NCBI GenBank assembly: GCA_003520025.1
Contig: DOVP01000282.1
Span: 1-24,481, forward strand
DNA: 24,481 nucleotides
From: Phycisphaerales bacterium
Lineage (GTDB): Bacteria > Planctomycetota > Phycisphaerae > Phycisphaerales > SM1A02
Reading direction: 5' to 3'
Shown here: positions 10,025-21,499 of the stretch, piece after piece
Layout: the number at the start of each line of letters is the position of its first letter
How positions within the stretch are numbered: the first letter of the stretch is position 1
Translations under genes and position numbers: made by a program
The notes under the pieces: model-generated
The model's input: only the letters and a program-made list of their open reading frames with translations
Told to the model about the DNA's origin: nothing
Databases searched by the model: none

Positions 10025-10099
10025 GACCCCATCGTCTAGTCAGGTCTAGGACATCAGGTTTTCATCCTGGGAACAGGGGTTCGAATCCCCTTGGGGTCG
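10025..10099 (+). tRNA. tRNA-Glu (anticodon UUC)
   Basis: 75 bases forming a complete cloverleaf. The acceptor GACCCCA pairs perfectly with TGGGGTC and G10099 is the discriminator. The anticodon stem TCAGG/CCTGG encloses loop TTTTCAT with anticodon TTC. The T arm AGGGG-TTCGAAT-CCCCT is canonical and the D arm GTCTAGTCAGGTCTAGGAC matches bacterial tRNA-Glu. CCA is not encoded. It stands alone between the nucleosidase and an unknown membrane protein. Confidence 0.95.
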
Positions 10100-14161: not shown

Positions 14162-14328
14162 TTTGATCCCGGGGTTATTCAATTTCATGGTATTCTTCGG
14201 CGGATCGAAGTCAGGCCCTAGTATCTGTGTTCTTTCAGGAGAGTGACAAATGGTCGACTTTTCAGCATCTCGACTCTCGGTTCGCGGTCGCTCCTTGGCG
14301 GCCGTGGTTGCCGCGATGCTCACACCCT
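14068..14328 (+). repeat. Direct repeat copy A (upstream of the protease gene)
   Basis: About 261 bases that recur at 15413-15703. The copy covers the last part of the MinD-like gene, the 88-base gap, and the first 26 codons of the protease gene. The outer parts are nearly identical between copies (the coding end differs by one synonymous base over about 80; the signal-peptide part by three bases over 60), while the middle, 14190-14245, has diverged. Copy A has a Shine-Dalgarno (CAGGAGAG) before the ATG at 14250 and a possible -10, TAGTAT, at 14219-14224. Confidence 0.9.
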
Positions 14329-15395
14329 GTGCCCTCGGTCAACTCACTCCCGATGACATCGATCGGTTGGAGGCCCAAGGTTTGCGTGAGGGCTGGACCT
14401 TCAGCGTTGGACTCAACGACGCGACCGAGATTCCGCTGCAAACGCTTTCAGGAGGCACGCCGCCCGCAGACGGCGACTCCGACCGCTGCGCCCCACCACC
14501 GCGGCAGGACTTGCCAGATTCATTTGACTGGTATCCTGATGGGGTCACGCCAGTGGGTAATCAAGGCCACTGCGGCTGCTGCTGGGCGTTTGGACTGCAC
14601 GGGCAAATGGAGGCGGCCCTGCTCATTCTGTCGGATAAAACCGAGGACCTGTCCGAACAGTACCTCGTCAGTTGTCTGCGCGAGGATGACAATTGTTCGG
14701 GCTGGAGCGCCTATCAGGCGGCGAGCAACTACCTCTCGACCGGCGCGACGCCCTCCTACCACTGCAGCGAATCGGGAACGGTTTCGGAGGGTCAACTGCC
14801 GTACACCTCCGGGACTGATGGAAGTTGGCCTCCATGCGAGTGCTCATACACCCACACCTACTTCCTAGAGAGCCGGGAAACGCCCTGGAGCGGCACGCCC
14901 ACAGTGGACGACCTCAAGACATTCGTGCACGAACACTATCCGATCACCGTCGGCATCCAGACGACCGATGCGTTCCACGCCTACACGGGCGGCGTATTCA
15001 ATGCCTGCCCCTCCAAAACAACCATGAGTCACTACGTGGTCATCGTCGGCTGGGACGACTCCCAAGGCCATTCTGGCGCATGGCACATCAAGAACTCATG
15101 GGGGACCGATTGGGGAGAGTCCGGGTTCATGTGGATTGAATACGGCTGCCTCAATGTCGGCACGTGGGCCACGACGGTGACCTTCGATGCGAGCATCATT
15201 GGAGTACCCCCATGCCCCGGCGACATCACAGGCAACGGCATCGTCGACGATGAAGATCTGCTCGGTATTCTGCAGGGATTCGGCCAGTGCCCGCCGTGTC
15301 ATGAAGATTGCGACCCGGCTACCGAAGCCATGTTTGGCATCGAGGACCTGCTCACGGTGCTGGCCGACTGGGGCACGTGCACACCTGCGAGTTGA
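14250..15395 (+). CDS. Secreted papain-family cysteine protease with dockerin-like C-terminus
   Basis: 381 residues. A twin of the neighbour's N-terminus serves as signal peptide (ASRLSVRGRSLAAVVAAML, cut near A28-L-G-Q31). A short pro-region follows, then a C1A papain domain from about residue 88 (LPDSFDWYPDGVTPVGNQGHCGCCWAF). Catalytic residues are Q105, C111 (in GCCWAF instead of the usual GSCWAF), H261 (MSHYVVIVGWD) and N282 (HIKNSWGTDWGESGF). Residues 323-377 form a dockerin-like pair: GDITGNGIVDDEDLLGIL with calcium-ligand D/N spacing, and a second EDLLTVLADWGTC. In planctomycetes such tails occur outside cellulosomes; here they may anchor the enzyme. The gene lies wholly between two direct repeats and is preceded by CAGGAG. 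Confidence 0.9.
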   Translation: MVDFSASRLSVRGRSLAAVVAAMLTPCALGQLTPDDIDRLEAQGLREGWTFSVGLNDATEIPLQTLSGGTPPADGDSDRCAPPPRQDLPDSFDWYPDGVTPVGNQGHCGCCWAFGLHGQMEAALLILSDKTEDLSEQYLVSCLREDDNCSGWSAYQAASNYLSTGATPSYHCSESGTVSEGQLPYTSGTDGSWPPCECSYTHTYFLESRETPWSGTPTVDDLKTFVHEHYPITVGIQTTDAFHAYTGGVFNACPSKTTMSHYVVIVGWDDSQGHSGAWHIKNSWGTDWGESGFMWIEYGCLNVGTWATTVTFDASIIGVPPCPGDITGNGIVDDEDLLGILQGFGQCPPCHEDCDPATEAMFGIEDLLTVLADWGTCTPAS

Positions 15396-19983: not shown

Positions 19984-20124
19984 GGCGGCAACTCCGGGCA
20001 AACAGGCACATGGCCCAGCGGCACCGCTGAGCCCTTCAGTGTGGCCTCGATTTGGGGGAAGTCGACGAAAAACCGCAGGGAATCGTGGTGGGGGGGACGA
20101 CCGTGGACGATCGGCATTTGTTCG

Positions 20125-20145
20125 GGTGCGATGGCACCTTTTTTT
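20125..20145 (+). terminator. Terminator-like hairpin upstream of mraZ
   Basis: GGTGC-GATG-GCACC followed by seven T on the plus strand. The stem is only 5 bp, but the T-run is perfect. No plus-strand gene lies just upstream, so it would insulate mraZ from antisense transcription or act as a leader attenuator if a promoter lies further left. Confidence 0.4.
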
Positions 20146-20182
20146 CGTTCTGTGGCAGAATTGGACCAAAAAAAGATGAGAA

Positions 20183-20208
20183 GTGTTGTGAAGTGGGGCA
20201 GAGTGGGG
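20183..20208 (+). promoter_or_regulatory. Putative MraZ operator: 10-bp-phased direct repeats
   Basis: GTGTTG at 20183, GTGGGG at 20193 and GTGGGG at 20203 repeat with an exact 10-base period. Known MraZ proteins bind TGGGN direct repeats separated by 5-base spacers upstream of their own gene. The array lies 98 bases before the mraZ start, just downstream of the TTGGAC candidate -35, so binding would overlap the core promoter and fit autorepression. Confidence 0.7.
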
Positions 20209-20305
20209 TAGTGTCCCAGCCGACAGGGATGATTGAGTCCTTTGGCCACACAGAATCACGGTGGGTGATTCAGGCCGCATCAGGGAATGCCGCGAGGAAT
20301 GACAG

Positions 20306-20785
20306 TTGCTGTTTACAGGCGAGCACGAGCACACGATCGATGCCAAATCGCGCCTTGCGATTCCGGCCGAGATTCGCGCCGGACTCGAAGCGGCTCAGCA
20401 TGGCACGGCCTTCTACGTGGCGCCCGGCACCAACGACACGGTTTGGCTCTGGCCCGAGCGACTCTTCGAGCAGATGGCCCAGGCATCAGAGGCCTCGCTG
20501 TTGCCGGACGAAGACCTGCTCGAGTTCGAGGAACTTCTGTACTCGCAGGCGAGCCGGGTGGAGATGGACAAGTCGGGACGGATTCGCGTGCCCGAACGAC
20601 TGCTCAAGCAAGCGTCGCTCGGTTCCTCGGTCATCCTGCTCGGGGTAAAGGATCACCTCGAGTTGCGGGATCCCGAACGCTGGGCTCGCCAACGGGACGA
20701 AAAACTGGTCAAGCAGGCCGAAATCATGATGCGGGCGCGTCGCGCGCTGCAACGCAGCCGCTCATCACATACGGAGGAACAGTGA
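20306..20785 (+). CDS. mraZ: Transcriptional regulator MraZ
   Basis: 159 residues with two AbrB/SpoVT-type half domains: HTIDAKSRLAIPAEIR near residues 9-24 and VEMDKSGRIRVPERLL near 86-101. MraZ forms ring oligomers and binds its own promoter, controlling the division and cell wall cluster. Start is TTG at 20306: GAGGA sits 7 bases upstream, and the nearby ATG at 20299 is out of frame. The family start (MF.GE) matches MLFTGEHEHTID. Normally rsmH and ftsL follow; here no rsmH ORF follows, although GGAGGA and a GTG overlapping the mraZ stop are in the right place. The basic C-terminus (RARRALQRSRSS) is slightly longer than usual. Confidence 0.93.
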   Translation: MLFTGEHEHTIDAKSRLAIPAEIRAGLEAAQHGTAFYVAPGTNDTVWLWPERLFEQMAQASEASLLPDEDLLEFEELLYSQASRVEMDKSGRIRVPERLLKQASLGSSVILLGVKDHLELRDPERWARQRDEKLVKQAEIMMRARRALQRSRSSHTEEQ

Positions 20786-20792
20786 TCCAGGT

Positions 20793-20828
20793 GTAGGCCC
20801 TCCGTCGGGCTGACGGGGCCTTCCCTAC
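20793..20828 (+). terminator. Long hairpin directly after mraZ
   Basis: TAGGCC and CCGTC on the left pair with GACGG, GGCC and CTA on the right around loop GGGCT, with small internal mismatches. It begins 8 bases after the mraZ stop. The loop has no GGA, unlike the following hairpins. Only TT follows, so termination would be weak; it may instead be a processing barrier separating mraZ from the downstream RNA. Confidence 0.4.
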
Positions 20829-20830
20829 GC

Positions 20831-21140
20831 AGGTACACAGGCGTCAAGCAGCAAGGACGCTTCTCGCTACAGGCACTGCCACGGATGGCACGCTGTCTGC
20901 AGGGAACCGTCCGATCCGCCGACCGGAACCCGGCGGATCGGACGACTCCCGGTGTACCAGCGAGCCAAGGACGGCTCGCTCAAGGCGCGGCACGCACCAC
21001 GCGGCACGGAAGCCGCGTGCCCCGTCTGCCCGCAAACCACGGTTTGCGGTGGATCTCTCGGTTGGTTCTCCCATACAGGGCGGACCAACACCTTCCCGGT
21101 TCGTGACGCGTCCCACCACGCGTCACGAACTTTCTTTTTG
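20831..21140 (+). ncRNA. Putative CsrA-sequestering small RNA (CsrB/RsmZ-like)
   Basis: About 310 bases with no credible ORF and a chain of stem-loops. Stems and loops: GCGTC/GACGC 20841-20860 with AAGGA at the loop edge; TGCCA/TGGCA 20877-20890, loop CGGA; a perfect 14-bp stem 20908-20921/20931-20944, loop ACCGGAACC; an 8-bp stem 20959-20966/20973-20980, loop AAGGAC; an 8-bp stem 20998-21005/21012-21019, loop ACGGAA; CGCAAACC/GGTTTGCG 21031-21048 followed by GGTGGA; GTTGGT/ACCAAC 21061-21089 with GGA in an internal loop; then the terminator at 21099. Nine GGA triplets in all; AGGA or ANGGA in hairpin loops is the known CsrA recognition element. The GGA loops read correctly only on the plus strand, and csrA is the convergent neighbour. 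The 5' end is unknown; no clear promoter is seen, so it may be processed from mraZ mRNA. Confidence 0.75.
21099..21140 (+). terminator. Strong intrinsic terminator of the small RNA
   Basis: A perfect 13-bp stem (21099-21111 with 21118-21130, TTCGTGACGCGT core) around loop CCCACC, followed by TTTCTTTTTG on the plus strand. The T-run overlaps the last codons of csrA on the other strand. On the minus strand no T-run follows, so there it would only cap the csrA message. Confidence 0.88.
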
Positions 21141-21350
21141 TGTGCCGCGGCCGATCTTGCCGGCGATGGGGGGTTTTTCGGTGAGGATCTGATCGGCGAC
21201 CTCGCGGCGGTGGACTTCGATTTCGCGGGGGAAGTCCATTGCGAGGCGAACGCGATCGCCCTTGACCGAGGCGATCCGGACAACCCCAATGGGGTTCGTA
21301 GGATCTCCAATGACTACTTCTTCGCCTTCCCGACGGGTGATCACAAGCAT
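21123..21350 (-). CDS. csrA: Carbon storage regulator CsrA (RsmA)
   Basis: 75 residues. CsrA is a dimeric RNA-binding protein that blocks ribosome sites carrying GGA in hairpin loops. The sequence MLVITRREGEEVVIG and VKGDRVRLAMDFPREIEVHRREV is diagnostic; R48 in VHRRE corresponds to R44 of the E. coli protein, which contacts RNA, and a 4-residue insert (PTNP) accounts for the shift. The C-terminal tail (TEKPPIAGKIGRGTQKESS) is longer than in enterobacteria. Start at 21350 follows AGGAGG with 8-base spacing; longer in-frame extensions are not family-like. No fliW is adjacent. The 3' end overlaps the terminator of the convergent hairpin RNA. Confidence 0.95.
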   Translation of the reverse strand: MLVITRREGEEVVIGDPTNPIGVVRIASVKGDRVRLAMDFPREIEVHRREVADQILTEKPPIAGKIGRGTQKESS

Positions 21351-21356
21351 GATCCG

Positions 21357-21367
21357 GGCCTCCTGCC
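21357..21367 (-). promoter_or_regulatory. csrA ribosome site doubling as possible CsrA self-site
   Basis: On the minus strand GGC-AGGAG-GCC can form a tiny hairpin with the Shine-Dalgarno AGGAGG in and next to its loop, 8 bases before the csrA ATG. A second hairpin, CGACA-TTG-TGTCG, lies just upstream. CsrA binding to GGA in such loops would block its own translation, a known form of autorepression in other bacteria. The 3-bp stem is short. Confidence 0.45.
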
Positions 21368-21499
21368 GACACAATGTCGTCCTGACTTTTCGATCGAGGT
21401 ACACCAACCTCGACCCACCACCCCGCAGCGTACAGCAAGTCCGCTCCCGCTCCAAGTGAGGCAGGGCCCGACATGCATTTCTGGGCCGTGAGCGGCCTC

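What the first reader, a model, noticed from the sequence alone, without database searches (positions are those of the whole stretch)
20831..21140. GGA-loop hairpin array: a candidate CsrA-sponge RNA encoded tail-to-tail with csrA
Seen: between mraZ and csrA about 300 bases carry consecutive stem-loops, four with perfect stems and apical loops CGGA, ACCGGAACC, AAGGAC and ACGGAA, plus further GGA triplets in unpaired stretches, ending in a 13-bp-stem terminator with a T-run. All GGA loops read on the plus strand only. Known: CsrB/CsrC and RsmX/Y/Z RNAs sequester CsrA through just such repeated GGA-loop hairpins; they are described mainly from gammaproteobacteria, are very variable in sequence, and are usually not next to csrA. 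Inference: an independent CsrA-titrating RNA in a planctomycete-like genome, sitting beside its target, possibly a fixed csrA/sponge cassette.
Basis: partly seen in the sequence, partly recalled or inferred. Interest (0 to 1): 0.95.

Follow-up and report, generated by a model that had tools for sequence, protein, structure and literature searches.

The report
CsrA-trapping RNA tail behind mraZ
In many members of one class of planctomycete bacteria, the DNA right behind the gene mraZ encodes a row of RNA hairpins whose loops show the motif that the regulator protein CsrA is known to bind, and the loops stay the same while the stems change; the RNA is therefore predicted to soak up CsrA, which would matter because in this phylum a protein, FliW, was proposed to do that job.

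Summary
The array is real and conserved. In 82 distinct mraZ loci of the window's order, hairpins with an A-N-GGA loop number 218 on the mraZ strand, 8 on the other and 11.9 in shuffles. In three alignments stems covary while most A-N-GGA loops stay fixed. A-N-GGA in a hairpin loop is the published CsrA site.

The array follows mraZ. It also occurs in several other orders of the class, where the next gene, when read, was usually rsmH, but not in 45 loci outside the class. The neighbouring csrA is an order-specific paralogue, CsrA2. Nine of nine genomes with only a CsrA2-type csrA and no FliW keep at least two such hairpins.

Best explanation: an mraZ 3' UTR that works as a CsrA sponge, likely under MraZ autocontrol. 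Transcription, CsrA binding and titration are untested; a cis role on the carrying mRNA is the main rival. No Rfam family reaches its threshold there. New variant of a known kind.

The parts
20194..20207 (+). MraZ-box-like direct repeat, TGGG at a period of 10 bases, upstream of mraZ
   Evidence: such a repeat lies upstream of mraZ in 63 of 82 loci against 13 of 1130 random windows; the consensus is recalled
20306..20785 (+). mraZ, whose 3' flank carries the array
   Evidence: Pfam MraZ, E 1.1e-23
20832..20838 (+). 5' side of long-range stem P1 (pairs with 20952-20958)
   Evidence: 7 pairs in 6 of 8 relatives, 6 pairs in the other 2, with compensatory forms
20846..20862 (+). hairpin H0, 4-bp stem, A-N-GGA site AAGGAC in a 9-nt loop
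   Evidence: GGA invariant in the 8 sequences
20877..20890 (+). hairpin H1, loop CGGA closed by A-T (A-C-GGA site)
   Evidence: both-side changes in 2 of 5 pairs but only 72.5% of cells paired
20908..20944 (+). hairpin H2, 14-bp stem, loop ACCGGAACC; not an A-N-GGA site
20952..20958 (+). 3' side of long-range stem P1
20959..20980 (+). hairpin H3, hexaloop AAGGAC
   Evidence: A and GGA invariant in 11 sequences, 100% of cells paired
20998..21019 (+). hairpin H4, hexaloop ACGGAA
   Evidence: A and GGA invariant in 11 sequences; stem invariant in 8
21030..21049 (+). hairpin H5, loop CACG, no GGA in the loop
   Evidence: both-side changes in 3 of 8 pairs
21062..21088 (+). hairpin H6, imperfect, GGA inside the stem
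21098..21139 (+). terminator-like hairpin with loop CCCACC and T-run
21123..21350 (-). csrA2, divergent CsrA paralogue, convergent with mraZ; its stop codon lies inside the terminator stem
   Evidence: Pfam CsrA, E 2e-14

Best explanation
The region directly behind mraZ encodes an array of conserved, covarying hairpins that present the CsrA-binding motif A-N-GGA, and this RNA likely acts as a sponge that would bind several CsrA dimers and keep them from their target mRNAs. Proposed mechanism (inferred): the mraZ promoter, likely controlled by MraZ itself through TGGG repeats, makes an mRNA that runs on through the array to a terminator. The array titrates CsrA, as part of the mRNA or as a fragment cut from its 3' end, so that CsrA activity would follow mraZ expression. 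In the window's order the partner is likely CsrA2, because genomes with a CsrA2-type protein as their only detected CsrA keep the array; in other orders of the class, where no CsrA2 was found, it would be canonical CsrA. Shown: array, strand bias, covariation, linkage to mraZ, terminator-like end in many loci, phyletic range. Inferred: one transcript, MraZ control, CsrA binding, titration.
For: 82 mraZ loci: A-N-GGA hairpins 218 on the mraZ strand, 8 opposite, 11.9 shuffled; at least two in 67 of 82 against 0 of 82; A two bases before GGA in 218 of 280 loops against 8 of 93 opposite; 94 of the 218 are hexaloops. Background in the same order 0.133 per 450 nt against 2.66. Pairs changed on both sides: 8 of 56, 11 of 43, 17 of 42, with 94.0, 97.2 and 97.9% of cells paired against 28-43% when slid. 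Published site: ANGGAN hexaloop, ANGGA hairpins in sponge sRNAs. The hairpins track mraZ. In the order the array is the transcript's end where a terminator-like site was seen, so it is no leader of a next gene there: such a site follows the first hairpin in 44 of 82 loci and precedes it in 1. MraZ-box-like repeats: 63 of 82 against 13 of 1130. Nine of nine genomes with one CsrA2-type csrA and no FliW have 2-6 hairpins, 29 in all, 0 opposite.
Against: No transcript or binding data. Many stems are longer than the four or fewer pairs of most SELEX ligands, where great stability was thought to hinder binding (mean stem here 6.6). 15 of 82 loci have fewer than two hairpins, and 37 have no terminator-like site by the stricter definition. 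Family f5, which lacks csrA2, keeps some hairpins (mean 1.33). In other orders the array lies before rsmH, where a cis role is as likely. MraZ-box-like repeats were seen in only 4 of 27 loci from other orders (different search window).
Confidence: 0.6

Rival explanations
1. Cis element: CsrA binds the hairpins to control the mRNA that carries them (stability of mraZ mRNA, or translation of rsmH in the orders where it follows), with little titration in trans.
For: In 10 of 11 loci read from other orders the next long frame looks like RsmH, and 3 of 3 tested are MraW/RsmH by Pfam. Two to four sites are common, as in CsrA-controlled leaders. CsrA is known to change mRNA stability.
Against: In the 8 loci of the order read no RsmH-like frame follows, yet hairpins persist there and in csrA2-only genomes; up to 6 hairpins in 450 nt is more than a cis switch needs.
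Confidence: 0.25
2. Stand-alone CsrB-like sRNA gene with its own promoter inside or just behind mraZ, independent of the mraZ transcript.
For: Strong independent fold and a terminator-like end.
Against: No sigma-70-like promoter found in 20100-21450 (planctomycete promoters may differ); the hairpins stay with mraZ across rearrangements, and the first starts a median of 77 nt behind its stop.
Confidence: 0.1
3. The hairpins serve something other than CsrA, for example RNA stability, a different RNA-binding protein, or transcription attenuation.
For: No binding data; hairpins persist in reduced number in family f5 without csrA2; two genomes without detected csrA have 2 hairpins each and one has 1; inside families with both kinds of genome csrA presence makes no clear difference.
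Against: A two bases before GGA, hexaloop preference and strand bias are those of CsrA sites. Family f79, with no csrA detected in 4 of 4 genomes, has none.
Confidence: 0.05

Closest known systems
CsrB/CsrC and RsmX/RsmY/RsmZ sponge sRNAs (Gammaproteobacteria)
   Same: Several A-N-GGA hairpins in one RNA, terminator-like end, sequence otherwise very variable (features and recall)
   Different: Planctomycete lineage; sits behind mraZ, apparently as its 3' UTR; no Rfam match; fewer sites than the about 18 subunits bound per CsrB; many stems longer than 4 bp
FliW as protein antagonist of CsrA
   Same: Serves to relieve CsrA; fliW lies directly before csrA1 in this genome
   Different: Protein, not RNA; lost together with csrA1 in nine genomes that keep csrA2 and the array
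UpsM, sRNA from the 5' leader of the dcw cluster in Rhodobacter sphaeroides (PMC5089854, title and abstract start in a listing only)
   Same: Small RNA made from the head of the division gene cluster
   Different: 5' leader, not behind mraZ; no link to CsrA appears in the part I saw
TwoAYGGAY RNA motif
   Same: Its name describes two AYGGAY elements, the same kind of loop
   Different: Listed for human gut, gammaproteobacteria and Clostridiales (PMC2864571, passage); not reported by Rfam in the window

Membership tests
CsrB/CsrC/Rsm sponge sRNAs | Several A-N-GGA motifs in hairpin loops on one strand | tested here: met
CsrB/CsrC/Rsm sponge sRNAs | Hairpins under selection as RNA (covariation) | tested here: met
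   the measure 'further pair types' did not exceed shuffles (20, 497 and 80 of 500 as high)
CsrB/CsrC/Rsm sponge sRNAs | Match to a CsrB, CsrC or Rsm model of Rfam | tested here: not met
   these models may not reach other phyla
CsrB/CsrC/Rsm sponge sRNAs | Own promoter, separate transcript | tested here: inconclusive
   no sigma-70-like site; planctomycete promoters not covered
CsrB/CsrC/Rsm sponge sRNAs | Binds and titrates CsrA | not testable with these tools
   needs gel shift and genetics
CsrB/CsrC/Rsm sponge sRNAs | Transcription driven by BarA-UvrY or GacS-GacA | not tested
   no search for these proteins was made; reported as characteristic of gammaproteobacteria
CsrA protein family (for csrA2) | Pfam CsrA domain over the curated cut-off | tested here: met
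   53.7 bits against 27
CsrA protein family (for csrA2) | NCBIfam csrA equivalog cut-off | tested here: not met
   56.3 against 73 and 49.1 against 70.1 bits

The most novel reading that the evidence does not exclude
[quoted passage not shown] It began between mraZ and rsmH, was set free as a terminal 3' UTR in Phycisphaerales, and there serves a second CsrA while FliW keeps the first: one cell, two CsrA proteins, one with a protein antagonist and one with an RNA antagonist.
Probability: 0.4. Interest if true: 0.88.

Novelty: new variant of a known kind. Interest (0 to 1): 0.8.

Why it matters
[quoted passage not shown] A review states that it remains to be determined whether FliW and sRNAs act together on CsrA in any species (PMC7652899, passage). 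Here FliW, two CsrA paralogues and a sponge-like RNA are encoded in the same genomes, which makes the question directly testable. It would also link CsrA to mraZ, the head gene of the dcw cluster, in a phylum described as dividing without FtsZ (PMC12283558, start of abstract in a listing).

Tried and rejected
csrA/sponge cassette: rejected, the array follows mraZ. Co-origin of array and csrA2: considered, rejected when arrays turned up in other orders, where csrA2 was not found. Dependence on csrA: mean 1.56 hairpins in 79 genomes with csrA against 0.45 in 11 without, p 0.003, not corrected for relatedness, and no clear difference inside the four families that have both kinds. One search had counted G167 as csrA-less; one search shows a weak match there, so one search replaces that test. 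Three of the 11 (G216, G218, G234) were judged only with the CsrA2 protein as query. csrA2 loss: family f5, one clade of 6 genomes, mean 1.33 against 2.59, p 0.007, but p 0.19 against the other non-f1 families. Three clusters of 3 or more lie outside mraZ flanks; the one in L074 is a coding repeat, those in L059 and L065 were not examined. Folding energy as strand evidence: rejected. Outside the class, three loci of family f30 (L186, L199, L216) have two A-N-GGA hairpins each in 700 nt; L186 and L216 were folded and left as unclear. Rfam: no match in the array (weak sub-threshold hits taken as chance). No other copy of the array was sought in the window's own draft genome (84% complete), and structure prediction, RNA-model building and the large protein search were not used.

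Literature: ten searches. None of the titles and abstract starts listed describes a CsrA sponge in Planctomycetes or behind mraZ; some lists were cut to the best 12-25 of many, and most subscription journals are not in that library. Read as passages only: PMC2864571, PMC7652899, PMC7366521, PMC8475190, PMC9438474, PMC4682653.

Definitions and dropped rows: hairpin = perfect stem of at least 5 bp (at most one G-T pair) with GGA inside a loop of 4-9 nt; A-N-GGA = A two bases before GGA (where the loop is 4 nt that A is the closing base of the stem). Of 115 loci with mraZ, 82 remain after removing duplicates (same last 120 nt of mraZ) and those with under 250 nt behind mraZ. In one search one of 50 loci had no sequence behind mraZ and 4 belong to the class, which leaves 45. 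G006 is not counted as a case of separated csrA2 and mraZ, because its two contigs both break inside what looks like the same array.

Full report
What is there. The window lies in a draft genome whose nearest named relatives are titled Phycisphaerales or Phycisphaerae (Planctomycetota); I use those names for the order and class labels of the genome search. On the plus strand mraZ (20306-20785) is followed by a dense series of stem-loops and a terminator-like hairpin at 21098-21139. On the minus strand csrA2 (21123-21350) ends inside that hairpin. Folding is stronger than in shuffles on both strands, so the loop motif, not the energy, tells the strand. Plain GGA triplets are not strand-biased in the window (10 against 9); A-N-GGA hairpins are (3 against 0).

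The array follows mraZ. Relatives were fetched by csrA2 and by mraZ. Of 113 distinct csrA2 loci 50 have mraZ tail-to-tail; in these 50 gaps A-N-GGA hairpins number 152 on the mraZ strand and 6 on the other, plain GGA hairpins 183 and 72, with 46.7 expected from shuffles. In 6 loci mraZ has another orientation, and clusters of 2 to 6 A-N-GGA hairpins follow mraZ on its own strand. Of the 57 loci without mraZ in view only 2 show a cluster of 3 or more, and both are cut by a contig end on that side. Two same-genus genomes whose csrA2 lies elsewhere (G005, G008) carry 3 and 2 such hairpins behind mraZ. So the array belongs to mraZ, and csrA2 is a neighbour by chance of gene order.

Counts over mraZ loci. 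In 82 distinct mraZ loci of the order the first 450 nt hold 218 A-N-GGA hairpins on the mraZ strand, 8 on the other and 11.9 in shuffles; 67 of 82 have at least two, against 0 of 82. The base two before GGA is A in 218 of 280 loops on the mraZ strand and in 8 of 93 on the other; loops of 6 nt (94) and 4 nt (75) dominate. Elsewhere in the csrA2 loci the rate is 0.133 per 450 nt over 1.16 million strand-bases. The loci are related, so these counts are not independent; by family the mraZ strand leads in 20 of 23 families (6 of 6, 14 of 17), two are reversed and one is tied.

Covariation. Three alignments were counted with structures that I set from one member of each. Same genus, 8 sequences: 94.0% of cells paired, 8 of 56 pairs changed on both sides. 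Second group, 6 sequences: 97.2%, 11 of 43. Third group, 8 sequences: 97.9%, 17 of 42. For cells paired, pairs and cells changed on both sides, and the covariation score none of 500 shuffles reached the observed value; the count of further pair types was not exceptional (20, 80 and 497 of 500 as high). Sliding the partner gave 28-43% paired. In the third group four A-N-GGA cores are invariant in 8 of 8 while their stems change. A long-range stem around the first three hairpins of the window has 7 pairs in 6 of 8 relatives and 6 in the other two, with compensatory forms.

Range. In 90 mraZ loci from other orders of the class A-N-GGA hairpins number 128 against 6; 37 of 90 have at least two, 0 of 90 on the other strand. 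Strong families are f73 (8 of 8), f78 (12 of 14) and f75 (7 of 10); f79 has none in 4, f84 one of 13. In 10 of 11 loci read from other orders the longest frame behind mraZ looks like RsmH, in none of 8 from the window's order (by eye); Pfam confirmed 3 of 3 tested. Outside the class there is no array: 13 against 10 in 45 loci of 700 nt (minus its four class members), though three loci of one family (f30) have two hairpins each. I infer an origin between mraZ and rsmH and a later separation from rsmH in Phycisphaerales.

Which CsrA. The genome has two csrA genes. csrA1 follows fliW directly. csrA2 has a four-residue insertion relative to E. coli CsrA, falls below the NCBIfam cut-offs and is found in 52 of 61 close relatives at E 1e-17 or better, while 0 of 68 genomes from other orders of the class reach E 1e-10. 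Nine genomes of six genera have a single csrA match and no FliW. For four it is csrA2 by direct comparison, for five I infer csrA2 from the Pfam score. All nine have 2-6 A-N-GGA hairpins behind mraZ, 29 in all against 0 opposite; the one genome with csrA1 and FliW only has 1. So the array does not need csrA1 or FliW. In the reverse case, family f5 without csrA2 (6 genomes), a reduced number remains (mean 1.33 against 2.59, p 0.007; p 0.19 against other non-f1 families). The partner is thus likely CsrA2 in this order and canonical CsrA elsewhere; neither is shown.

Expression. No sigma-70-like promoter was found in 20100-21450. The first A-N-GGA hairpin starts a median of 77 nt behind mraZ; a terminator-like site precedes it in 1 of 82 loci and follows in 44, with none seen in 37 (62 of 82 have one by a laxer definition). 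Direct repeats of the MraZ-box type lie upstream of mraZ in 63 of 82 loci against 13 of 1130 random windows, but in 4 of 27 loci from other orders with a different search window. The box consensus is recalled; that MraZ represses its own gene in E. coli is from PMC8475190 (passages). The simplest reading is one mRNA, mraZ plus array, under MraZ control. This is inference.

Function. The loop rule A-N-GGA(N) with hexaloops is that of CsrA/RsmE sites (PMC7652899, passages; PMC7366521, passages), and several such sites in one RNA are the mark of sponge sRNAs. Against it, most SELEX ligands had four or fewer contiguous pairs, while the mean stem here is 6.6. In Phycisphaerales no RsmH follows, so the array is not its leader there, which favours titration; control of mraZ mRNA itself stays possible. 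I hold the sponge at 0.6 and a mainly cis role at 0.25.

Novelty. No Rfam family reaches its threshold in the array, and ten literature searches listed no paper on it. It works like CsrB/RsmZ but is not filed as a member: the Rfam test is not met and an own promoter is not shown. Two published statements are touched: BarA-UvrY-made sRNA antagonists rarely or never outside gammaproteobacteria, with Planctomycetes listed as possible FliW users, and the open question whether FliW and sRNAs ever act together.

Noticed in passing
window 21112-21117 (+), loop of the terminator hairpin: The loop CCCAC(C) is conserved although terminator stems differ between genera: 32 of 41 mraZ-downstream terminators have it against 1 of 72 others in the same loci. 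Unexplained; it is complementary to GTGGG of the MraZ-box-like repeats.
   Followed up: partly
window 21123-21350 (-): CsrA2: a CsrA paralogue with a four-residue insertion, found in the order only among the class genomes searched, below the NCBIfam csrA cut-offs.
   Followed up: partly
window 20786-21125 (-), behind csrA2: No T-run follows the hairpin on the csrA2 strand, so a csrA2 transcript could run on as antisense RNA to the array (inference from the sequence).
   Followed up: no
L170, L177, L179, L180, L181 (family f5, no csrA2): Behind mraZ a small open frame seems to begin; in L177 two A-N-GGA sites (AAGGA, ACGGA) lie just before its likely ATG, like a CsrA-controlled leader (read by eye).
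   Followed up: no
L074, about 1012-1163 on the minus strand of the turned locus: A-N-GGA cluster that is a coding repeat (Asn-Gly rich), not an RNA array.
   Followed up: yes
L186, L199, L216 (family f30, outside the class): Two A-N-GGA hairpins each within 700 nt behind mraZ; may be a weak relative of the array or chance.
   Followed up: partly
window 14250-15395 (+): Open frame that looks like a papain-type cysteine peptidase with a dockerin-like end (recalled resemblance, not tested).
   Followed up: no
window 10025-10099 (+): tRNA gene, the only Rfam match over threshold in the window.
   Followed up: no
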